A stretch of DNA of 9,904 nucleotides, taken from contig JASHVX010000145.1 in assembly GCA_030044375.1 (NCBI GenBank), positions 1 to 9,904 on the forward strand, in the 5' to 3' direction. The DNA is from Nitrososphaerales archaeon. Lineage in GTDB: Archaea; Thermoproteota; Nitrososphaeria; Nitrososphaerales; Gagatemarchaeaceae. Shown here one piece after another: positions 1,249 to 9,388 of this stretch (positions are counted from its first letter, which is position 1; every line of letters starts with the position of its first letter). The position numbers and the translations under genes are program-made. The notes under the pieces were generated by a model. It was not told where the DNA came from, searched no databases, and was given only the letters and a program-made list of their open reading frames with translations.

Positions 1249-2196
1249 GTGAGCCTCTGGAACGCTAGCAGGGACGGGACGCTCATGGGCTCGTGCCCCA
1301 TCTGCGGGAACAAGCTCATAGGCGACACCGAGAAGGGAGAGGAGGTCTGCCCGACCTGCGGCTACGTGACCTACGCCCCAGCGGACCAGGGCCCCGAGTG
1401 GAAGGCGATGGACCTCGAGGAGAAGAACAAGAGGGTCCGCGTCGGCGCACCGACCACGCTCGCCCTGCACGACCTCGGCCTTAGCACTGAGATCAGCAGG
1501 ACGATGCGCGACTCGCACGGCAGGTCCCTGGACCCGGCCATGCGGGCGGCAACTGAAAGGATGAGGAAGTGGCAGAGCCGCGCCAGGACGAGCACCAGCG
1601 AGGAGAGGGGGCTCTCCAACGTGCTGGCGAAGATAAACGAGCTGTGCCAGACGCTGAACCTCCCCGACAACGTGGCCCAGACCGCGGCCCAGATCTACAG
1701 GAACTCGGCCAAGATGAAGGTGGCGAAGAGCAAGTCGATACTCGGCATGACCGCTGCGACGGTCTACCTCGCATGCAGGAAGTGCGGCGTCTCGAGGACC
1801 CTGAAGGAGGTGGCTAGGGCGGCCGGGATGGAGAAGGGGAACGTCGCGAGGTACTTCAGGCTCGTGCTCAAAGAGGTCGAGAAGGAGTACGTGCCTCCTC
1901 CGTCGGTGGAGAAATACATCTCCAAGTTGATAAACACGGCCAAAATCGACCCGAAGGTGGAACATCTGGCCCTGACGCTGTCGAGGAAGACGGTCGACTC
2001 GCGGATCTCGAGCGGGAAGGCGCCCGCGGGGCTGGCGGCGGCGTACGTCTACCTCTCGTCCGTGCTCATAGGCGCGCACCTCCCGCAGAGAGAGATAGCC
2101 GAGTTCGCCGAGGTCACCGAGGTCACCGTCAGGAACAGGTGCAGGGAGATACTCGACGACTACGTGATAAGACAGGAGTTCGGCCAACCCAGTTGA
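1249..2196 (+). CDS. tfb: Transcription initiation factor TFB (TFIIB homologue)
   Basis: TFB binds TBP-TATA and the BRE, recruits RNA polymerase and directs start-site choice. Counting from the GTG at 1249 (315 aa), the zinc ribbon uses C16, C19, C34 and C37 (CPIC and CPTC). The B-reader/linker region, with GAPTTLALHDLGLSTEI, follows at about 66-82. Two cyclin repeats cover roughly 120-210 and 217-308. The second ends in the helix-turn-helix region REIAEFAEVTEVTVRNRCRE, which corresponds to the BRE-recognising part. All core domains are present and the length is typical. The ATG at 1285 (giving MGSCPICG) is an alternative start that would still keep the zinc ribbon. The gene sits between gar1 and a TFE-beta-like gene, probably in one transcript. 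Confidence 0.95.
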   Translation: MSLWNASRDGTLMGSCPICGNKLIGDTEKGEEVCPTCGYVTYAPADQGPEWKAMDLEEKNKRVRVGAPTTLALHDLGLSTEISRTMRDSHGRSLDPAMRAATERMRKWQSRARTSTSEERGLSNVLAKINELCQTLNLPDNVAQTAAQIYRNSAKMKVAKSKSILGMTAATVYLACRKCGVSRTLKEVARAAGMEKGNVARYFRLVLKEVEKEYVPPPSVEKYISKLINTAKIDPKVEHLALTLSRKTVDSRISSGKAPAGLAAAYVYLSSVLIGAHLPQREIAEFAEVTEVTVRNRCREILDDYVIRQEFGQPS

Positions 2197-2225
2197 CGGC
2201 ACTAAAGCAGGCCACGGTCCAGAAG

Positions 2226-2738
2226 ATGCACCCGCAGAAGAAGGCGGGGCCGGACAAGGGCGCCCACGAGCGGCCGGCCAAGAGCCCGAAGGTCGCGAAG
2301 AGGAAGGAGGAGAAGCCTTCGAAGCCGGTGGAGCGGACGGAAGAGGAGTTGGTGGACCTGACCTCGAGGGTCTACAAGCTGGTGGTGGAAAGAGGCAGGG
2401 ACGGCGTCCTCCAGAGCGAGATCTGGAAGGAGCTGGGCCTGACGAGCAGGGACGGCTCGAGGCTCGCGATCAGGCTGGAGCGCCGGGGCCTCATAGGCAG
2501 GGTGAAGGTCCTCGAAGAAGGGCGCTGGACCTACAAGCTCACCCCTCTGCGCTTCCCGACCGACATGGCCTCCATAGAGAAGGCGCCCTGCGTGGTCTGC
2601 CAGTTCGAGCCGAAGTGCAGCGTGGACGGACAGATCAGCCCGTCCATCTGCCCGTGGATAGGGCCCTGGGTCATAGAGGAGGCGCGTGCGGCGTCCTCGG
2701 GAGCGGCCGCGGTGGCGTCCCAGGTGCCTACGGGTTAG
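2226..2738 (+). CDS. TFE-beta (RPC34/39-like) winged-helix Fe-S transcription factor
   Basis: Counting from the ATG at 2226 (170 aa), a Lys-rich tail of about 38 residues leads into a winged-helix domain (about 42-106: VDLTSRVYKLVVERG, then SEIWKELGLTSRDGSRLAIRLERRGLI and a WTYKL wing). A C-terminal cluster of four cysteines follows, C122, C125, C131 and C142, spaced C-x2-C-x5-C-x10-C and ending CPW. This architecture is that of archaeal TFE-beta, the homologue of RNA polymerase III subunit RPC34/RPC39, whose cysteines hold a 4Fe-4S cluster. TFE-beta pairs with TFE-alpha and helps open the promoter. Its place directly behind tfb fits. Alternative starts are TTG 2193 (overlapping the tfb stop as TTGA) and ATG 2139. 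The family call rests on architecture, not a database search. Confidence 0.78.
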   Translation: MHPQKKAGPDKGAHERPAKSPKVAKRKEEKPSKPVERTEEELVDLTSRVYKLVVERGRDGVLQSEIWKELGLTSRDGSRLAIRLERRGLIGRVKVLEEGRWTYKLTPLRFPTDMASIEKAPCVVCQFEPKCSVDGQISPSICPWIGPWVIEEARAASSGAAAVASQVPTG

Positions 2739-2757
2739 CCGAAGCCGAGTCCGAAAG

Positions 2758-3420
2758 TTGAGGCTACATGAGGCGAAGCGAGACCTCTACAGGAGGCTCG
2801 CAAAGGAACAGGGCTACAGGAGCAGGGCGGCCTTCAAGCTCATCCAGGCCAACGAGAGGTTCCGCTTCCTAAGGAAGGGGTTCAGGGTCGTAGACCTCGG
2901 GTCGGCCCCGGGCGGATGGGTGCAGGTCGCGTCCCACGCGGTAGGCGACTCGGGGTTCGTCGTCGGGGTCGACATCCACGACATCAGGGTGAGGGGCCCT
3001 AACATCAAAGGGATCTTGATGGACGTGAACGGAGAGAAGCTCGTCGAAGCCGTGCTCGCGGCCCTCCGCGGCGCCAAGGCCGACGTCGTGCTCTCTGACC
3101 TCGCGCCTTCGGTCTCCGGGGTGTGGGAGCTCGACCAGGGGGCGCAGGCCGACCTGACCTTGAGGGCGCTGGACCTCTCGGAGTCGCTGCTTCGGGCGGA
3201 CGGCTCCGGCTTCTTCAAGCTCTTCGAGGGAGAGCGTTCGCAGGAGGTCAGAGACGAGTTCCGAAGGGCCTTCAGGGCCGTGCACACGCTGAAGCCGGCC
3301 GCGAGCAGGAGCGTCAGCTCAGAGCTGTACTACTACTGCGAAGGCTGGAAGCCCGGGGTCAGAGCCCCGGACGACTCAGAAGCGAAGCTCAGCGGCCCCG
3401 CCTCGCGGCCGCGCCCTTGA
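2758..3420 (+). CDS. rlmE: RlmE/FtsJ-type ribose 2'-O-methyltransferase
   Basis: This is an FtsJ/RrmJ-family enzyme that transfers methyl from SAM to a 2'-hydroxyl. In bacteria the target is 23S U2552; the same role in archaea is inferred. Counting from TTG 2758 (220 aa): GYRSRAAFKL (19-28), SAM motif VVDLGSAPGGW (44-54), VVLSDLAPSVSG (110-121), GFFKLFEGE (151-159) and SSELYYYC (187-194). The catalytic tetrad K27, D114, K154 and E189 is complete. No TRAM domain follows. TTG 2758 gives the usual short N-terminus; GTG 2686 would add an unconserved Arg-rich tail that overlaps the preceding gene. The gene begins 19 nt after the TFE-beta-like stop. Its last 32 bp overlap the end of trm1 on the other strand. 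Confidence 0.9.
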   Translation: MRLHEAKRDLYRRLAKEQGYRSRAAFKLIQANERFRFLRKGFRVVDLGSAPGGWVQVASHAVGDSGFVVGVDIHDIRVRGPNIKGILMDVNGEKLVEAVLAALRGAKADVVLSDLAPSVSGVWELDQGAQADLTLRALDLSESLLRADGSGFFKLFEGERSQEVRDEFRRAFRAVHTLKPAASRSVSSELYYYCEGWKPGVRAPDDSEAKLSGPASRPRP

Positions 3421-4540
3421 CCGCCTCCGAGACCGCCCTATACGGGGCGTCTGTCTTCAGCCCGGTCTTCTCGAACGGCTGCTTCATCGTCCTGAATCCT
3501 GCCTCCCCTAGGAGCTCCGCCACCACCGCGTCGGAGACGCCAGGTATCCTGAGCGAGGAGCAGACGCCCTCGACGCTGAAGCTCCAGGGCGGGAACTCGT
3601 CGACGCCCCTGAGTGACGCCAGCACCTTCGCCGCGTCGCCCAGACCCAGGGCCTCGGCGGACGCCACCGCCTCCCCGAGCAGGGCTCGGTCTGTGACCGG
3701 GCCGAGCCACAGGGGCCCCGCCACCCTCCACTTCGCCCCGCAGGCGGGGCACTCCGCGGCCAGGACTGGCCCCGAGGCGAGCTCGCCGCACTTCCTGCAC
3801 CACCCGACGCTCCCTTCGTTTCGCCTCCCTGCCTCAGCCTCCGTGGCCCCGACCTCCACGCGCACGTAAGCCCTCAGGTAGTGGAGGGTGCTGTGGGCCA
3901 GCAGAGGCTGCACCCCCAGGTCCAGCGCGGCCGCCTGCCTCCTCACGGCGCCGAGAAGCAGCCTAAGGGCGGTCTCGTGGTGGAAGTGGTTGTTGATTGG
4001 GGTCCCGCCGTACCTCCTCTCCGCCACCCTGACGTGCACGCCGCAGAGCACGGCCGTGTCGGTGGCAGTCAGCGACAGGACGCCGCCGTCCTTCACGGCC
4101 CTCAGGGCCGCCTGGAGATAGGGGACCGGCGTGCCGAAGGGGTCTATGTCGACATGGTCGAACTTCTCGTCCCTCCCGTACCTCGAGTAGAGGAAGGAGT
4201 TCGCCTCTCCGGCGACGAACTCGCAGCGGCCGGCCACGCCGTTCGCGGCTGCGTTCCTCCTCCCCAGCCTGATCGAGTCCCTGTTGATGTCCACCAGCGT
4301 CGTGCTCCGCGTCTTTCTGGCCGACGGCTCTCGCAGGACCCTTATCCCTCTCGCCCCCATCCCGGCCAGGGCGTCGCAGAACGCCCCCCCTCCAGAGGCA
4401 TCGACCACGGCCACAGAGACAGACCTGTTCACAGAGGCCGCCGGGTTGTAGAACACCGGGAGGGTCGGGGGCGCGGGAGAGAAGCTCTCCTTGGGGACGA
4501 GCAGCTCCGTCACCCCTTCGAGCCTTCGGACCAGCTGCAA
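3389..4540 (-). CDS. trm1: tRNA (guanine-26,N2)-dimethyltransferase Trm1
   Basis: Trm1 methylates G26 of many tRNAs, at the junction of the D and anticodon stems, using SAM. The 383-aa protein shows VFYNPA (29-34), the SAM-site segment DALAGMGARGIR (56-67; usually DALSATGIRGIR), LVDINRDSI (82-90), DHVDIDPFGTPVPYLQAA (128-145) and LTATDTAVLCG (157-167). A zinc site of CRKC (C248, C251) and CPAC (C264, C267) follows. The length is normal for archaeal Trm1. The start is TTG: a stop occurs 15 codons upstream, and a TTAA promoter element lies about 26 nt before it, suggesting a leaderless transcript. It is divergent from the THEP1 gene and converges on rlmE with a 32-bp antisense overlap. Confidence 0.95.
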   Translation of the reverse strand: MQLVRRLEGVTELLVPKESFSPAPPTLPVFYNPAASVNRSVSVAVVDASGGGAFCDALAGMGARGIRVLREPSARKTRSTTLVDINRDSIRLGRRNAAANGVAGRCEFVAGEANSFLYSRYGRDEKFDHVDIDPFGTPVPYLQAALRAVKDGGVLSLTATDTAVLCGVHVRVAERRYGGTPINNHFHHETALRLLLGAVRRQAAALDLGVQPLLAHSTLHYLRAYVRVEVGATEAEAGRRNEGSVGWCRKCGELASGPVLAAECPACGAKWRVAGPLWLGPVTDRALLGEAVASAEALGLGDAAKVLASLRGVDEFPPWSFSVEGVCSSLRIPGVSDAVVAELLGEAGFRTMKQPFEKTGLKTDAPYRAVSEAVKGAAARRGR

Positions 4541-4565
4541 CCTGGCCGAGCTGCTGCCTTCGCCT

Positions 4566-4573
4566 GTTAAGCC
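4566..4573 (-). promoter_or_regulatory. TATA element for trm1
   Basis: On the minus strand this reads GGCTTAAC, identical to the element before rps8e. It ends about 26 nt upstream of the trm1 TTG start, the spacing expected for leaderless transcription. The 84-bp region between trm1 and the THEP1 gene carries divergent promoters. Confidence 0.5.
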
Positions 4574-4593
4574 AATCGCCGCGCTCTAGAAAG

Positions 4594-4603
4594 GGTATTC
4601 TAC
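4594..4603 (+). promoter_or_regulatory. Putative TATA element for THEP1 gene
   Basis: The stretch GGTATTCTA is the only AT-rich run in front of the THEP1 start, about 25 nt before the ATG at 4625. It is a weaker match than the TTAA-type elements elsewhere in the window, so support is modest. Confidence 0.35.
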
Positions 4604-4624
4604 CGCCTCGCGACCCTCTCACTC

Positions 4625-5176
4625 ATGGGTCGGATCTGGCTCCTAACCGGGCCGCCAGGCGTGGGCAAGTCCACGGTCGTCTCCAGGGTGGTCCTCAGGC
4701 TCAAGGGGTCGGGGACAATAGTGGGCGGTTGCGCCACGTCAGAGAAGAAGTCGGGCGGGACCAGGGTAGGCTTCGAGATGGTCAACCTCACCGACGGCAC
4801 GAGGGGCGAGCTCGCCTCCGCAACGAGGAGCCTCGGCCCGCGCGTGGGCCGCTACAGGGTCAACCTCGCCGACATCGCCAACATCGGGGCCGCCGGCCTG
4901 TCGAAGGCCGCCGAAGTCTCCGAGCTGATAGTCATCGACGAGGTCGGGCCCATGGAGCTCGTCAGCCCGGAGTTCAGGCGTGCGATCAGAGTCTGCATCG
5001 ACTCCGGCAAGCCCATCCTCGCAGTCGCGCACGAAAGGCTCGACGACGACCTCCTGAACGAGCTCAGGGACAAGGCAGAGAAGACCCTCGCAGTGACAGT
5101 GGAGAACAGGGACGACGTGGTGGAGGAGCTCGCTGCAGACCTTCTCGGCGCGGTCGGCGGCCCGAAAACAAGTTAA
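4625..5176 (+). CDS. THEP1-family nucleoside-triphosphatase
   Basis: This 183-aa P-loop NTPase begins MGRIWLLTGPPGVGKST, with Walker A GPPGVGKST at residues 9-17. The Walker B segment LIVIDEVGPMEL (101-112) has D105 and E106, and EVGPMEL is characteristic of the THEP1/NTPCR family (COG1618). Family members hydrolyse NTPs slowly with broad base specificity; the physiological role is not settled. The size, about 180 aa, is usual for archaeal members. The ATG at 4625 starts directly before the P-loop strand, so no residues are missing. The gene is followed 24 nt later by rnhB on the same strand; whether they share a transcript is unclear, because rnhB may have its own TATA element inside the end of this gene. 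Confidence 0.9.
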   Translation: MGRIWLLTGPPGVGKSTVVSRVVLRLKGSGTIVGGCATSEKKSGGTRVGFEMVNLTDGTRGELASATRSLGPRVGRYRVNLADIANIGAAGLSKAAEVSELIVIDEVGPMELVSPEFRRAIRVCIDSGKPILAVAHERLDDDLLNELRDKAEKTLAVTVENRDDVVEELAADLLGAVGGPKTS

Positions 5177-5178
5177 GG
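5168..5178 (+). promoter_or_regulatory. Putative TATA element for rnhB
   Basis: ACAAGTTAAGG contains the same TTAA core seen before gar1, trm1 and nop5. It lies about 25 nt before the TTG start of rnhB and overlaps the last codons of the THEP1 gene. rnhB may therefore have its own leaderless transcript in addition to read-through. Confidence 0.4.
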
Positions 5179-5200
5179 CCCTCGAGGCCGCGCGAGGGAG

Positions 5201-5857
5201 TTGCCCTCTCTCATCGGAGGCGTCGACGAGGCGGGCAGGGGCTGCGTCGTGGGCGCGATGGTCGTCGCCGGCGTGTCTGCGACCAGGGAGGCCCTGAAGG
5301 AGCTGAAGGAGGTCGGCGTCAAGGACTCCAAGAGGCTCACCCGCAGGCAGAGGGAGACCCTCTATCCGGAGATACTGAAGCTCAGCTCCCGGGTCTACTG
5401 GGCCCAGATCGACCCGGTGGAGATCGACGTCGCGGTGGCGCTGGGCCGGAGGTACAGGAACCTGAACTACCTGGAGGCGAGGTACTTCGCAAAGGTCATC
5501 GACGAGCTGGACGCGCGCACCGTGACCGTGGACGCGTGCGACACCGTGCCCGAGAGGTTCAAGGGGGCCATCGCCGACAACATGAGGTCGAGCTGCAGGC
5601 TCAGGGCGCTCCACAAGGCCGACAGGGACTACCCCGCGGTCTCAGCGGCGTCGGTCGTGGCGAAGGTGGAGAGAGACAGGCAGGCTGACAGGCTCAGGCA
5701 GCTTCACGGCGACTTCGGCTCGGGGTATCCGTCGGACAGGAAGACGAAGGACTACTTCGCCCGCTGGCTGCGGGACGGCAAGCAGCCGCCCGATTGGACG
5801 AGGAGGAGCTGGAGGTCGTGGGAGTCCTTCAGGCAGACCGTCCTGGCGCCGGTGTGA
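5201..5857 (+). CDS. rnhB: Ribonuclease HII
   Basis: RNase HII removes single ribonucleotides and RNA from DNA-RNA hybrids in replication and repair. The 218-aa protein carries GGVDEAGRGCVVGAMVVAG at the N-terminus, VKDSKRLTRRQRE (40-52), VTVDACDTVPE (108-118) and HKADRDYPAVSAASVVAKVERD (138-159). The four metal-binding acidic residues are all present: D9, E10, D111 and D141. The length fits archaeal RNase HII. TTG 5201 is the only start close to the first conserved strand. The end is convergent with flpA, leaving 13 bp between the two stop codons. No fusion or truncation is seen. Confidence 0.95.
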   Translation: MPSLIGGVDEAGRGCVVGAMVVAGVSATREALKELKEVGVKDSKRLTRRQRETLYPEILKLSSRVYWAQIDPVEIDVAVALGRRYRNLNYLEARYFAKVIDELDARTVTVDACDTVPERFKGAIADNMRSSCRLRALHKADRDYPAVSAASVVAKVERDRQADRLRQLHGDFGSGYPSDRKTKDYFARWLRDGKQPPDWTRRSWRSWESFRQTVLAPV

Positions 5858-5870
5858 CCGCTACCTCTCG

Positions 5871-6536
5871 TCAGCCCCGGCCGCCCGACTTCGCGTATAT
5901 CATCGCGTGGTCCTTCTCGAAGGGCCCTAGGTCCGTAGCCGCGACGACCCTGAACCCTGCCGACTCGAGCTTCGCCCTCTCCTCGCGGAAGACCCTCTCG
6001 GGCTCCTTCAGGACGTCTATGCTCCGCGACTTCACCACGAGGAGCAGCCTTCCTCCCGGCTCCAGCATCGCGGCGCAGTTCGCCAAGGCTATCTCTGTCT
6101 GGTCCGGCTGGGCTATGTCGCAGTAGACCACGTCCACCCTCGAGACGTTGTACTTGGACGGGTCCCTCGCGTCCACGATGTACGGGATGACGTTCTTCCT
6201 CTGCCTCGCGACCTTCTCGACGAACTCCCTCGCCACCCTCGGCGCGAACTCCACGCCTATCACCAGGCCCCCGTCTCCCACGATGTCGGACACGTGCGAC
6301 GGGGTCGTGCCCGTCGAAGTCCCCAAGTAGAGGACCCTGTCTCCCTCCCGCACCATGTCGTCGGGCAGGCCCTTCAGTATGGCCGCGGCCAGCTTGCTCC
6401 TGAAGGGGTCCCACGTCCTGTACTCTGCCCCCTCCCTCACTACGAGCTCCTCGTTGTAGACCCTCTGCCCCTTCGCGAGGTTCGGCGTCAGGAGGAAGGT
6501 CCTGCCGTGCCGCTCCTCCCGAAGGATGCGGCTCAT
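5871..6536 (-). CDS. flpA: Fibrillarin-like rRNA/tRNA 2'-O-methyltransferase
   Basis: FlpA is the catalytic subunit of the archaeal C/D-box RNP, methylating ribose at guide-specified positions with SAM. Counting from the ATG at 6536 (221 aa): RVYNEELV (25-32), RTWDPFRSKLAAAILKG (40-56), VLYLGTSTGTTPSHVSDIVG (68-87), GVEFAPR (94-100), VDVVYCDIAQPDQTEIA (134-150) and LLLVVKSRSID (164-174). The SAM loop reads GTSTGTT; archaeal fibrillarins more often have an Ala/Ser-rich GxASGTT there, but the glycines are kept. The start ATG overlaps the nop5 stop by 4 bp (ATGA), showing translational coupling with its RNP partner. A longer in-frame reading exists upstream, but it only shadows nop5. Confidence 0.95.
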   Translation of the reverse strand: MSRILREERHGRTFLLTPNLAKGQRVYNEELVVREGAEYRTWDPFRSKLAAAILKGLPDDMVREGDRVLYLGTSTGTTPSHVSDIVGDGGLVIGVEFAPRVAREFVEKVARQRKNVIPYIVDARDPSKYNVSRVDVVYCDIAQPDQTEIALANCAAMLEPGGRLLLVVKSRSIDVLKEPERVFREERAKLESAGFRVVAATDLGPFEKDHAMIYAKSGGRG

Positions 6537-7456
6537 CGCCTGCGGTACTTCTGGCGCCTGTCGCGCGGCCGGTCGCGCCTCTGCTGGGGGCGCTCCCGCC
6601 TCTCCGGCTGCCTCGGCGGCGGCTCCTTGTACTTCTCCCTGATGCTCTCCAGCCTCTTGTCCAGGCCCGCCTTGATGGAGGCCTCCTCCGACCCCCTGTA
6701 GTAGTCGACCCGCGCCGCGATGGCGACCTTGTTCGCTATCGTCCGGGCTATCTTGCCCCGCTGCCACTTCGGCGCCGCGTGGACGGCCTCGTGCTGGAAG
6801 AGTATCCCGTGCTTGGGCGGCCTCGCCCCCGTCCTGAGGGCGCGGAAGAGCGCCTTCTCGGCCCCTAGTATCTGTATCGTGCTCGCGGGCAAGGTGGCCA
6901 GCCTGTCGAGGCCCCCTGCCTTCGCCATCAGGCGTGCGCCTATGGTGGCGCCCGCCACCTCGCAGACGTTGGGGGCGATCCTGTGCATGGCCGACTCCAC
7001 GTACTCGTTCAGCTTCTCCCTCTCGCCGCTCAGCTCCACGGCAAGGGAAGACAGCGACCTGACCCTCGCGAGGTCGGCGTCGGAAAGCTCGCCTCCCTTC
7101 GACCTCTCCTTGGCGGTGAGTATGGCTTCTATCTTCTTCTCGGTGAGACCTCTCCCCTGCAGGAGCTCAGCGTTGAAGCCGTCCCTCTTCCCGGCGGCGA
7201 GCACCAGCCTGCAGAGGGCGACGTTGTCCTGCACCATCTGTGCCAGTTCGGGAAAGTGGAGGCCGTACCACTCGGCGGCCCTCGTCGCTGTGATGTTCAG
7301 GAACTTGTCGGAGTCGTCGAGCGCCTGTATCGCCTGGACCAGGTGGAGGTCCGGCCTGGACGACGCCTTCCTTATCGTCTCCTCGGCCGCCAGTATGGAC
7401 TTCTCCCTTAGGTCCTGCAGGGACTTCGCGTCCCCCTGCGGCGCCTGCGATGCCAT
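6533..7456 (-). CDS. nop5: C/D-box RNP scaffold Nop5 (Nop56/58), short form
   Basis: Nop5 bridges guide RNA-L7Ae and fibrillarin in the C/D-box RNP. The 307-aa product has the coiled-coil/Nop region: LVQAIQALDDSDKFLNI (39-55), EWYGLHFPEL (62-71) and the Nop signature LATLPASTIQILGAEKALFRAL (186-207), followed by PPKHGILFQH (213-222) and APKWQRGKIARTIANKVAIAARVD (228-251). An Arg/Pro-rich tail runs from about 279 to the end. What is missing is the roughly 100-residue N-terminal domain that binds fibrillarin in Pyrococcus and Sulfolobus Nop5: only about 20 residues precede the coiled-coil region. The ATG at 7456 is supported by a TATA element about 28 nt upstream; the open frame continues upstream through the promoter, but shows no Nop5-like sequence there. 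Confidence 0.92.
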   Translation of the reverse strand: MASQAPQGDAKSLQDLREKSILAAEETIRKASSRPDLHLVQAIQALDDSDKFLNITATRAAEWYGLHFPELAQMVQDNVALCRLVLAAGKRDGFNAELLQGRGLTEKKIEAILTAKERSKGGELSDADLARVRSLSSLAVELSGEREKLNEYVESAMHRIAPNVCEVAGATIGARLMAKAGGLDRLATLPASTIQILGAEKALFRALRTGARPPKHGILFQHEAVHAAPKWQRGKIARTIANKVAIAARVDYYRGSEEASIKAGLDKRLESIREKYKEPPPRQPERRERPQQRRDRPRDRRQKYRRR

Positions 7457-7483
7457 GGGGTTCGCCAACCGCAGGCCCTGACC

Positions 7484-7494
7484 GGTTAAAGGGT
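7484..7494 (-). promoter_or_regulatory. TATA box for nop5-flpA
   Basis: The minus strand reads CCCTTTAACC, a clear TATA element about 28 nt upstream of the nop5 ATG. It suits a leaderless or near-leaderless mRNA and fixes the nop5 start at 7456 rather than at longer upstream readings. Confidence 0.55.
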
Positions 7495-7543
7495 TTCGGG
7501 GCCAAGGCTTTCGTCGGGTCTGTCCCACAGTCCAGTCGCTAGC

Positions 7544-7556
7544 AAGATTAATAGAC
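7544..7556 (+). promoter_or_regulatory. Putative TATA element for rps30e-elp3
   Basis: AAGATTAATAGAC is the only AT-rich run between the nop5 promoter and rps30e. It would start transcription near 7575-7580, giving a leader of about 20 nt that carries the ribosome-binding site. The 141-bp region 7457-7597 therefore holds divergent promoters for nop5-flpA and rps30e-elp3. Confidence 0.45.
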
Positions 7557-7576
7557 TCCGGAGCGCGAGCGCACCC

Positions 7577-7584
7577 AAGGAGGT
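7577..7584 (+). promoter_or_regulatory. Strong Shine-Dalgarno site before rps30e exon 1
   Basis: AAGGAGGT matches the anti-Shine-Dalgarno end of 16S rRNA and lies 13 nt before the ATG at 7598. It is the clearest such site in the window, where most genes appear leaderless. It independently supports 7598 as a true translation start even though the uninterrupted frame from there has only 23 codons. Confidence 0.6.
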
Positions 7585-7597
7585 CTGACAAAGAACA

Positions 7598-7796
7598 ATG
7601 CCGACCCACGGGAGTCAGCAGCACAGCCTAGAGCTGGCTGCCTCCAGTCACCAAGGCTGGGAAGGTTAGATCGCAGACACCGAAGCTAGAAGGCAAGCCG
7701 AAGCCTGGCAAGACACCTAAGGTAAGGAACAGGCGCACCTACGAGAAGCGTTTCACGCTCAAGCGCAAGCCTGGCCAGAACTGGATGCGCTCGTGA
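7598..7796 (+). CDS. rps30e: Small-subunit ribosomal protein S30e, interrupted by a 31-nt intron
   Basis: The coding sequence is join(7598..7616, 7648..7796). Exon 1 gives MPTHGS plus the first base of codon 7; exon 2 begins TC, completing CTC (Leu), and continues TKAGKVRSQTPKLEG. Other recognisable parts are KTPKVRNRRTYEKRF and the end KRKPGQNWMRS. The spliced protein has 55 aa, the normal size of archaeal S30e, a basic 30S protein homologous to eukaryotic Fau/S30. Neither frame alone is enough. The exon-1 frame stops at TAG 7667-7669 after 23 codons. The exon-2 frame has a TAG at 7629-7631 and no ATG, GTG or TTG before the conserved TKAGK. The stop codon overlaps the elp3 GTG as GTGA, implying coupled translation. 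Expression should depend on splicing. Confidence 0.88.
7617..7647 (+). other. 31-nt pre-mRNA intron with bulge-helix-bulge motif
   Basis: The RNA folds as follows. Central 4-bp helix: 7611-7614 GGAG with 7642-7645 CUCC. 5' bulge: UCA (7615-7617). Intron helix: GCAGC (7618-7622) with GCUGC (7637-7641), one bulged A (7623), CAGC (7624-7627) with GCUG (7633-7636) and a 5-nt loop. 3' bulge: AGU (7646-7648). The tRNA splicing endonuclease cuts between bulge nucleotides 2 and 3. Here that means UC|A and AG|U, exactly the junctions that restore the S30e frame. Outside the 3' bulge only one pair (G7610-C7649) forms, so this is a relaxed motif lacking a proper outer helix, as often seen in Crenarchaeota. 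The fold and frame are seen; actual splicing is inferred. Confidence 0.85.
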
Positions 7797-9388
7797 GCGA
7801 GTCCGCGAGGGCCAAGGAGGCGGCGTCTTTCATCGCCGCCGAGGTCGGGAGGGGGGCCGTCCAGTCGCGCGAGGCCCTCGAGAAGCTGAAGAGAGAGACG
7901 GCAAAGAGGTTCTCCCTCTCCGAGTTCGTCTCCAACTCCCAGATCATCTCCGAGCTGGGCCCGTCGGCGAGCGGCCCTCTGCAGGGCCCGCTGCTGCAGG
8001 TCCACCCCAGGAGGAGCGCGTCAGGGATAGTCGTGGTCACGGCCTTCTCCGCGCCCGACTCCTGCCCGCACGGGACCTGCGTGTTCTGCCCAGGCGGGCT
8101 GAGCTGGGGGACGCCGCAGAGCTACCTGCCGCAGAGCCCGGGCATGAAGACGGCCATAGGCGTCTCCTTCGACCCCTTCCTCCAGGTCAGGCGCTCGCTG
8201 GAGAAGTACGAGGCGAACGGCCACCCGACTGAGAAGGTCGAGACGATCATAGAGGGAGGCACCTTCATCTCGCTCAGAGGCGACTACCAGGCCTCGTTCG
8301 TCAAAGGGGTCTACGACGGCCTCAACGGGTTCGCGTCCCGCGACCTGAGCGGGGCCCAGGAGGCGAACGAGTCTGCTCGCAGCAGGTGCGTGGGCCTCAC
8401 CCTGGAGTCGAAGCCCGACTGGTGCAGGCCGGAGGACATCGACCTGATGCTCGGCTACGGGATCACGAGGCTGGAGATAGGAGTCCAGAGCCTGAGGGAC
8501 GGCACCCTCGCGCGCAGCAACCGCGGCCACACCGTGGCGCACACCGTCGACGCCTTCAGGACGGCGCGCGACGCCGGCCTCAAGGTGACCGCTCACATGA
8601 TGCCGGGCCTCCCTGGCGCGACCCCCGCGCAGGACCTCGAGGACCTCCGCACCCTCTTCGAGAGCCCGGAGCTCAGGCCCGACATGATGAAGGTCTATCC
8701 CACGCTCGTTGTCCCGGGGACGTCGCTCGCCAGGCAGTTCGAGGCGGGGCTCTACAGGCCGTACGACACCGAGACCGTCGTGGAGCTCCTCAGCGACATG
8801 AAGCGCTTCGTGCCCAGGTGGCACAGGATAATGCGGATACAGAGGGAGATACCGGCCGCAGAGATATCGGCCGGCGTGAGGAACGGCAACCTCAGGGAGC
8901 TCGTCCTCGCGAGGGCCTCGGAGAAGGGCTGGGGCTGCAGGTGCATCAGGTGCAGGGAGGTGGCCCTGGGCTCCCCCACGGACGCCGACCCCGGCGACTC
9001 CTTGGGCTACTCGGAGGAGAGGTACGAAGCCTCGGATGGCGCCGAGGTCTTCGGCTCGATGGAGTACTCCGAGACAGGCAGGATAGCTGGCTTCGTGCGG
9101 CTCAGGGCCCCCTCGGAGAGGGCCCACAGGCCGGAGCTCAGGGGCGGAGCGACCGTAGTCAGGGAGCTCCGAGTCTACGGCCGCCAGGTCGGGCTGGGCA
9201 AGAGGAGGGGGGACGCCTGGCAGCACAGGGGGATCGGGGCCGCCCTGATGGCGGCCGCGGAGCGTGTCTCCAAGGAGGACTTCGGCGCGAGGAGGATGCT
9301 CGTCACCAGCGCGGTGGGCACCAGGGGCTACTACAGGAGGCTCGGCTACGAAAGGCTCGGCCCGTACATGTCGAAGCGCTTGGCGTGA
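7793..9388 (+). CDS. elp3: Elp3: radical-SAM / acetyltransferase tRNA U34-modifying enzyme
   Basis: Elp3 uses SAM and acetyl-CoA to start 5-carboxymethyl-type modification of the wobble uridine of tRNAs. The 531-aa protein has the 4Fe-4S motif SCPHGTCVFCPGG with C91, C96 and C99 (C-x4-C-x2-C). It is followed by VETIIEGGTF, LESKPDWC, GITRLEIGVQSLRD, HMMPGLPG and MKVYPTLVVPGTSL, all in the family order. A segment rich in Cys (WGCRCIRCREV) links to the GNAT domain, whose acetyl-CoA loop is QHRGIG at 477-482, and the protein ends GYYRRLGYERLGPYMSK. Both catalytic domains look complete. The GTG start overlaps the rps30e stop (GTGA), so translation is probably coupled to spliced S30e mRNA. The end is convergent with the permease gene, 7 bp apart. 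Confidence 0.95.
   Translation: MSESARAKEAASFIAAEVGRGAVQSREALEKLKRETAKRFSLSEFVSNSQIISELGPSASGPLQGPLLQVHPRRSASGIVVVTAFSAPDSCPHGTCVFCPGGLSWGTPQSYLPQSPGMKTAIGVSFDPFLQVRRSLEKYEANGHPTEKVETIIEGGTFISLRGDYQASFVKGVYDGLNGFASRDLSGAQEANESARSRCVGLTLESKPDWCRPEDIDLMLGYGITRLEIGVQSLRDGTLARSNRGHTVAHTVDAFRTARDAGLKVTAHMMPGLPGATPAQDLEDLRTLFESPELRPDMMKVYPTLVVPGTSLARQFEAGLYRPYDTETVVELLSDMKRFVPRWHRIMRIQREIPAAEISAGVRNGNLRELVLARASEKGWGCRCIRCREVALGSPTDADPGDSLGYSEERYEASDGAEVFGSMEYSETGRIAGFVRLRAPSERAHRPELRGGATVVRELRVYGRQVGLGKRRGDAWQHRGIGAALMAAAERVSKEDFGARRMLVTSAVGTRGYYRRLGYERLGPYMSKRLA

What the first reader, a model, noticed from the sequence alone, without database searches (positions are those of the whole stretch)
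7598..7796. A 31-nt bulge-helix-bulge intron splits the ribosomal protein S30e gene
Seen: an ATG with a strong Shine-Dalgarno site begins MPTHGS, the canonical archaeal S30e N-terminus. The rest of S30e (TKAGKVRSQTPK onward) is in another frame after a short insert. The insert and its edges form a BHB fold with a 4-bp central helix (GGAG/CUCC), two 3-nt bulges (UCA and AGU) and a stable intron hairpin. Known: the archaeal tRNA splicing endonuclease cuts BHB bulges between nucleotides 2 and 3. Applying that rule here, without adjustment, gives AGUC joined to UCACC, which reads MPTHGSLTKAGK in frame. Two independent constraints, structure and reading frame, therefore agree to the nucleotide. Known archaeal pre-mRNA introns are few, the best studied being in cbf5 of Crenarchaeota; I do not recall a described one in rps30e, nor one this short in a protein gene. 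If confirmed, the enzyme processes a ribosomal-protein mRNA at codon 7.
Basis: partly seen in the sequence, partly recalled or inferred. Interest (0 to 1): 0.95.

Follow-up and report, generated by a model that had tools for sequence, protein, structure and literature searches.

The report
Tiny introns in archaeal S30e gene
In one family of uncultured archaea the gene for ribosomal protein S30e is interrupted, at one or both of two places, by inserts of 19 to 46 bases that are predicted to be cut out of the messenger RNA by the enzyme that splices transfer RNAs, which would make it only the second archaeal protein gene reported to carry such introns inside its coding sequence.

Summary
The finding holds and is larger than reported. 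Window 7598-7796 encodes S30e, split after nucleotide 19 by a 31-nt insert (7617-7647) that folds as a bulge-helix-bulge (BHB). The canonical endonuclease cut restores S30e exactly and is the only strict BHB in the region. The genome belongs to the family of Ca. Gagatemarchaeum. There, 27 of 31 rps30e genes found are interrupted: 10 by this intron (A), 11 by a second intron (B, 19-20 nt, after nt 35), 6 by both; 4 are intact. A blind scan finds the frame-restoring BHB cut in 26 of 27. Differing insert lengths rule out a fixed frameshift. Both structures covary, exon wobble bases included. Exon 2 is under protein-level selection, and elp3 follows in 31 of 31 loci. EndA matches in 40 and RtcB in 43 of 46 family genomes. 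Of 54 named loci outside the family, 53 are uninterrupted there and one has a one-base insertion. Papers seen report only cbf5 as a coding BHB intron. Splicing is inferred; no RNA data were at hand. Intron A switches in step with the start codon (ATG/TTG with it, ACG without).

The parts
7544..7552 (+). putative TATA-like promoter element (AAGATTAAT)
   Evidence: read from sequence; GATTAA lies 25-75 nt upstream of the start in 15 of 16 intron-A genes; function inferred
7577..7584 (+). Shine-Dalgarno sequence AAGGAGGT
   Evidence: read from sequence
7598..7616 (+). rps30e exon 1 (MPTHGS plus first base of codon 7)
7617..7647 (+). 31-nt BHB intron (intron A)
7648..7796 (+). rps30e exon 2, ends with TGA
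7611..7614 (+). central helix, 5' strand GGAG (in exon 1); 7612 is the wobble base of the Gly codon
7615..7617 (+). 5' bulge UC|A, predicted cut between 7616 and 7617
   Evidence: structure; cut rule from the known enzyme (stated in PMC2738675)
7618..7641 (+). inner hairpin GCAGC-A-CAGC / GCUG-GCUGC
7642..7645 (+). central helix, 3' strand CUCC (in intron); 7644 pairs with 7612
7646..7648 (+). 3' bulge AG|U, predicted cut between 7647 and 7648
7793..9388 (+). elp3 (radical SAM plus GNAT domains), overlaps the rps30e stop (GTGA)
   Evidence: follows rps30e in 31 of 31 family loci

Best explanation
The insert at 7617-7647 is a bulge-helix-bulge intron of the rps30e pre-mRNA that is predicted to be cut out by the archaeal tRNA splicing endonuclease (EndA), after which a ligase, likely RtcB, would join the exons into an in-frame S30e message. 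Shown from sequence: the BHB fold, exact frame restoration at the canonical cut, covariation across relatives, a second BHB intron (B) at codon 12 of the same gene in relatives, and no convincing other S30e copy in the interrupted genomes. Inferred: cleavage by an alpha-beta type EndA, ligation, release of a small intron circle, and that unspliced message gives only a short aborted peptide (23 residues here). The introns have come or gone repeatedly within the family.
For: Canonical cut gives S30e in 27 of 27 interrupted genes; blind scan agrees in 26 of 27. A: 95.1% of cells paired, 4 of 13 pairs changed on both sides; B: 100% paired, 6 of 11 pairs changed on both sides; RNAalifold unaided gives the central and inner helices of A and the whole BHB of B. 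Insert lengths 31/32/46 and 19/20. Codon-position differences in exon 2 of 0.141, 0.106, 0.462. EndA matches in 40 of 46 and RtcB in 43 of 46 genomes; EndA alpha with its catalytic His in the window's genome.
Against: No RNA or protein data. The outer helix of intron A is one pair. In wide flanks the BHB is not the minimum-energy fold for 15 of 33 introns (0.4 to 2.2 kcal/mol above it; worst in the window), and the 68-nt window fold is unremarkable. G019 has a mismatch in the inner helix of its intron A. The count of further pair types did not exceed the shuffle control (101 and 251 of 500 shuffles as high). RtcB and a beta subunit were not found in the window's own genome, which is 72% complete. 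15 of 46 family genomes show no S30e at all.
Confidence: 0.94

Rival explanations
1. Translational recoding: ribosomes shift frame or hop over the hairpin, and the RNA is never cut.
For: The insert is short and hairpin-forming; an AGTCA repeat flanks it in the window.
Against: Lengths 31, 32, 46 (A), 19, 20 (B) and sums 51, 50, 65 need different frame changes. The AGTCA copies lie 33 nt apart, so a hop between them would not restore the frame, and the downstream copy is not kept (AATCA in G010 and G021, ATTCA in G034). Covariation is centred on the BHB.
Confidence: 0.02
2. Pseudogene or assembly error.
For: The window is from a 72%-complete draft genome in 166 contigs.
Against: The same insert with covarying differences in 16 genomes of five genera; substitutions concentrated at third positions; no convincing second copy in interrupted genomes (one weak extra match in G027, 38% identity with a stop).
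Confidence: 0.01
3. The BHB is cut but the exons are not rejoined: cleavage serves to switch the message off or to release a small RNA.
For: BHB cutting in a Haloferax 5' leader is reported to matter for expression (PMC7714728, passages).
Against: Exact in-frame joining in 27 of 27 genes and selection on exon 2 mean that joined message must be made; no other copy could supply S30e.
Confidence: 0.03

Closest known systems
cbf5 pre-mRNA intron of Crenarchaeota (PMC2738675, outline and section 8 part 1 seen; Watanabe 2002 seen only as a citation)
   Same: BHB intron inside a coding sequence, cut expected between nucleotides 2 and 3 of each bulge, mostly unconventional BHB, gain and loss among relatives
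   Different: Other gene (S30e, ribosomal), other phylum (Nitrososphaerota), two intron positions with both in six genomes, intron B only 19-20 nt; cbf5 itself shows no interruption in this family (full-length match in 42 of 46)
BHB in the 5' untranslated region of HVO_1309 mRNA, Haloferax (PMC7714728, passages)
   Same: mRNA substrate of the splicing endonuclease
   Different: Not within the coding sequence
Archaeal tRNA introns of the relaxed BHB kind (PMC4090602, PMC12397907, passages)
   Same: Same motif and, by inference, same enzymes; Thaumarchaeota are said to have alpha2-beta2 endonucleases
   Different: Host RNA is an mRNA

Membership tests
Archaeal BHB (EndA-type) introns | Central helix of 4 bp between two 3-nt bulges on opposite strands | tested here: met
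   Window and 27 of 27 interrupted genes; kept through both-side changes
Archaeal BHB (EndA-type) introns | Cut between nucleotides 2 and 3 of each bulge joins the exons correctly | tested here: met
   27 of 27 in frame as S30e
Archaeal BHB (EndA-type) introns | Inner helix and outer helix (full hBHBh') | tested here: inconclusive
   Inner helix met except a mismatch in G019 A; outer helix 3 bp in B (15 of 15 distinct sequences), only 1 bp in A. Relaxed motifs are accepted by some archaeal enzymes (PMC12397907, passages)
Archaeal BHB (EndA-type) introns | Host encodes the endonuclease | tested here: met
   EndA alpha in G000; beta-like subunit without the catalytic His in 9 of 9 relatives read, not found in G000
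Archaeal BHB (EndA-type) introns | Host encodes an RNA ligase (RtcB) | tested here: inconclusive
   43 of 46 family genomes, but not the incomplete window genome
Archaeal BHB (EndA-type) introns | Spliced RNA and excised intron observed | not testable with these tools
   No RNA reads available
cbf5 intron family | Lies in cbf5 | tested here: not met
   Lies in rps30e; cbf5 uninterrupted in 42 of 46 family genomes
Group I or group II introns | Ribozyme core of hundreds of nucleotides | tested here: not met
   Inserts are 19 to 46 nt; the size of such ribozymes is recalled

The most novel reading that the evidence does not exclude
The 5' end of rps30e in Gagatemarchaeaceae is an expression valve that evolution has set in two interchangeable ways: either an ACG start codon, or an AUG/UUG start followed by a BHB intron that the tRNA endonuclease must remove. 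Splicing would then tie synthesis of a ribosomal protein to the cell's tRNA and rRNA processing capacity.
Probability: 0.2. Interest if true: 0.9.

Novelty: new member of a known kind. Interest (0 to 1): 0.82.

Why it matters
A 2020 paper states that to date one BHB intron in an mRNA coding region, in crenarchaeal cbf5, had been reported (PMC7714728, passages), and the searches of the held papers that bear on introns listed no paper on an rps30e intron. A second host gene, encoding a ribosomal protein, in another phylum, with two positions, both filled in some species, and presence that varies among close relatives, makes the origin and loss of archaeal mRNA introns open to direct study. It also means that gene finders would miss or truncate such genes.

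Tried and rejected
Recoding, pseudogene or assembly error, and cleavage without joining were considered and rejected (see rivals). A covariance model of intron B over the 46 family genomes found intron B in 17 of 17 carriers plus four weak matches (E 0.0017 to 0.094) whose alignments lack a proper BHB and which I read as chance; no further host gene appeared, but the model is tied to rps30e sequence, so this is weak evidence of absence. No model was built for intron A. The 15 family genomes without an S30e match were probed with a C-terminal DNA pattern: no exact match; the six one-mismatch hits (10 in the backwards control) are not S30e by their surroundings, so the gene is most simply absent from those drafts. 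cbf5 was checked for the classical intron: none. A duplicate-locus explanation was rejected because elp3 follows rps30e in 31 of 31 loci. A search for ACG starts in archaea (listing only) gave nothing that I followed.

Full report
Observation. The window holds an rps30e gene whose start (ATG 7598) is out of frame with its body. Removing 7617-7647 gives a 55-residue protein that matches Pfam Ribosomal_S30 at 2.6e-12. The insert and its edges form GGAG/CUCC between two 3-nt bulges, with a nine-pair inner hairpin holding one bulged A; a 51-nt stretch folds so at -19.8 kcal/mol, 1 of 200 shuffles doing as well. Results against: in 68 nt a rival hairpin across the 3' junction is preferred and 25 of 200 shuffles fold as well; in 70 nt the BHB lies 2.2 kcal/mol above the minimum, the worst of the 33 introns tested with wide flanks. 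The BHB is the minimum itself in 18 of those 33 (7 of 16 A, 11 of 17 B; where a gene has both, B was folded with A taken out).

Where it comes from. The window is contig C43 of a 0.94-Mb draft genome, 72% complete. Of 46 held genomes of its family, 31 have an S30e match at E up to 0.01. One of them, G067, coincides in coordinates with record PLUF01000027.1, Ca. Gagatemarchaeum stordalenia bog_1369, named as type material of the family Gagatemarchaeaceae in PMC10640624 (passages; the words intron and splicing do not occur in its main text). NCBI places the genus in Nitrososphaerota.

Two introns. Of the 31 genes, 10 carry intron A alone (window included), 11 carry a second intron B alone, 6 carry both, and 4 are intact. 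A follows nucleotide 19 of the coding sequence and is 31 nt (11 genes), 32 nt (4) or 46 nt (1); carriers belong to five genera. B follows nucleotide 35 and is 20 nt (11) or 19 nt (6); carriers belong to three genera. B is a full BHB with 3 outer, 4 central and 4 inner pairs. The canonical cut gives (start)PTHGSLTKAGKVR in frame in 27 of 27. A scan that did not know the frame found a frame-restoring BHB in 26 of 27; G019 fails because of a mismatch in the inner helix of its intron A. Some genes have further candidates that do not restore the frame (up to six candidates in G013 and G015); three intact genes have none and G061 has one. Shuffles gave 0.32 candidates per 150-nt region (1080 shuffles).

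Covariation. Distinct sequences only (14 of 16 A, 15 of 17 B). A: 95.1% of 182 cells paired, 4 of 13 pairs changed on both sides, among them the central pair that is G-C in 7 and A-U in 7 and whose 5' base is the wobble base of the glycine codon. B: 100% of 165 cells paired, 6 of 11 pairs changed on both sides; the last central pair is G-C, C-G or U-G, again with a glycine wobble base on the exon side. Sliding the partners by 1 to 3 columns left 28 to 59% paired. Against: the number of further pair types did not exceed the column shuffles (101 and 251 of 500 as high), and shuffles do not remove relatedness. RNAalifold unaided gave the central and inner helices of A and the whole BHB of B.

Removal from RNA rather than recoding. 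Lengths 31, 32, 46, 19, 20 and the sums in double carriers (51, 50, 65) need different frame changes. In exon 2 (codons 14-52) 0.141, 0.106 and 0.462 of compared sites differ at codon positions 1, 2 and 3, so it is translated as S30e. Interrupted genomes show no convincing other copy; G027 has a weak second match (E 3e-4, 38% identity, a stop inside).

Machinery. PF01974 matches in 40 of 46 family genomes. The window's genome encodes a subunit with the motif GPGIDHAP, as do 8 of 8 subunits of that type read; it is closest to the endonuclease chain 3p1z_B (2.9e-39), and chain 3ajv_B has Ala at that His. That this His is catalytic and that these chains are from A. pernix is recalled. A second, shorter-scoring type lacks this His in 9 of 9 read, the pattern of an alpha-beta enzyme; PMC4090602 says that Thaumarchaeota have alpha2-beta2 endonucleases (passages). 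RtcB occurs in 43 of 46, not in the window's incomplete genome.

Distribution. Of 80 named loci (kept from 91), 56 are uninterrupted at this place and 24 are not. Of the 24, 23 carry A and/or B (read) and one, L078, has a one-base insertion without a BHB. Three of the 56 (L044, L064, L066) are intact family members. Among 400 genomes of the order 355 match; in the printed part of that table the one match outside the family that starts after residue 2 is G103, apparently the same record as L078; rows beyond the cut were not seen. On a Cbf5 tree of 35 genomes (29 with known state) A needs at least 6 changes and B at least 10; gain cannot be told from loss.

An unexpected link. The 16 genes with A start with ATG (10) or TTG (6); the 15 without A have ACG at that place. 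In 13 of these 15 an in-frame stop lies upstream with no ATG, GTG, TTG or CTG between; G061 has a CTG between, and G065 has no stop within 39 codons. The switch goes together in 4 of 4 independent pairs on starred branches, too few for significance (p 0.125). The promoter element differs too: GATTAA in 15 of 16 with A, TATATA in 12 of 15 without. Either the whole 5' region is exchanged between lineages, or intron and weak start are alternative brakes; the latter is the novel case.

Literature. Ten searches of the held open papers, eight of them on introns. PMC7714728 (passages) says that besides its own 5'-leader case only cbf5 had been reported; PMC2738675 (outline, section 8 part 1) describes gain and loss of that intron. 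Also seen in passages: PMC12397907, PMC3189178, PMC13149111, PMC4090602, PMC11782384, PMC8707768. None of the listings or passages mentions an rps30e intron; most subscription journals and all preprints are not held.

Verdict. A conserved pair of BHB introns in a ribosomal protein gene; a new member of a known and very small class; splicing inferred, not observed.

Noticed in passing
L002, L003, L015, L021, L023, L025, L026, L029, L031, L032, L035, L036, L040, L041, L042 (family); L028 and L077 (outside it): rps30e appears to start with ACG behind a Shine-Dalgarno sequence: 15 of 15 family genes without intron A, 0 of 16 with it.
   Followed up: partly
L070, L072, L080: Other loci of the 80 named ones show CTG (L070) or GTA (L072, L080) where the rps30e start is expected.
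   Followed up: no
25-75 nt upstream of rps30e in the family loci: Promoter-like element differs with intron state: GATTAA in 15 of 16 with intron A, TATATA in 12 of 15 without.
   Followed up: partly
L037 (G068) against L038 and L039: Intron A of G068 is 15 nt longer by CGT/CAT-type triplets in the hairpin tip: a tiny repeat growing inside the intron.
   Followed up: no
G002, G012, G023, G025, G061, G066: RtcB matches come in two pieces (about 1-50 and 27/49-426) within open frames of about 1000 residues, as an intein would give.
   Followed up: no
L078 and L223 (G103:C156): rps30e of another family has one extra base after codon 7 and no BHB; sequencing error or frameshift.
   Followed up: partly
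G026 C67 and C69: This intron-free, 88%-complete genome shows two EndA matches over the beta-like profile range and none over the alpha-like range.
   Followed up: no
window 1249-9388: The window is a run of RNA and translation genes: TFIIB, FtsJ, Trm1, RNase HII, fibrillarin, Nop5, S30e, Elp3 (Pfam).
   Followed up: no
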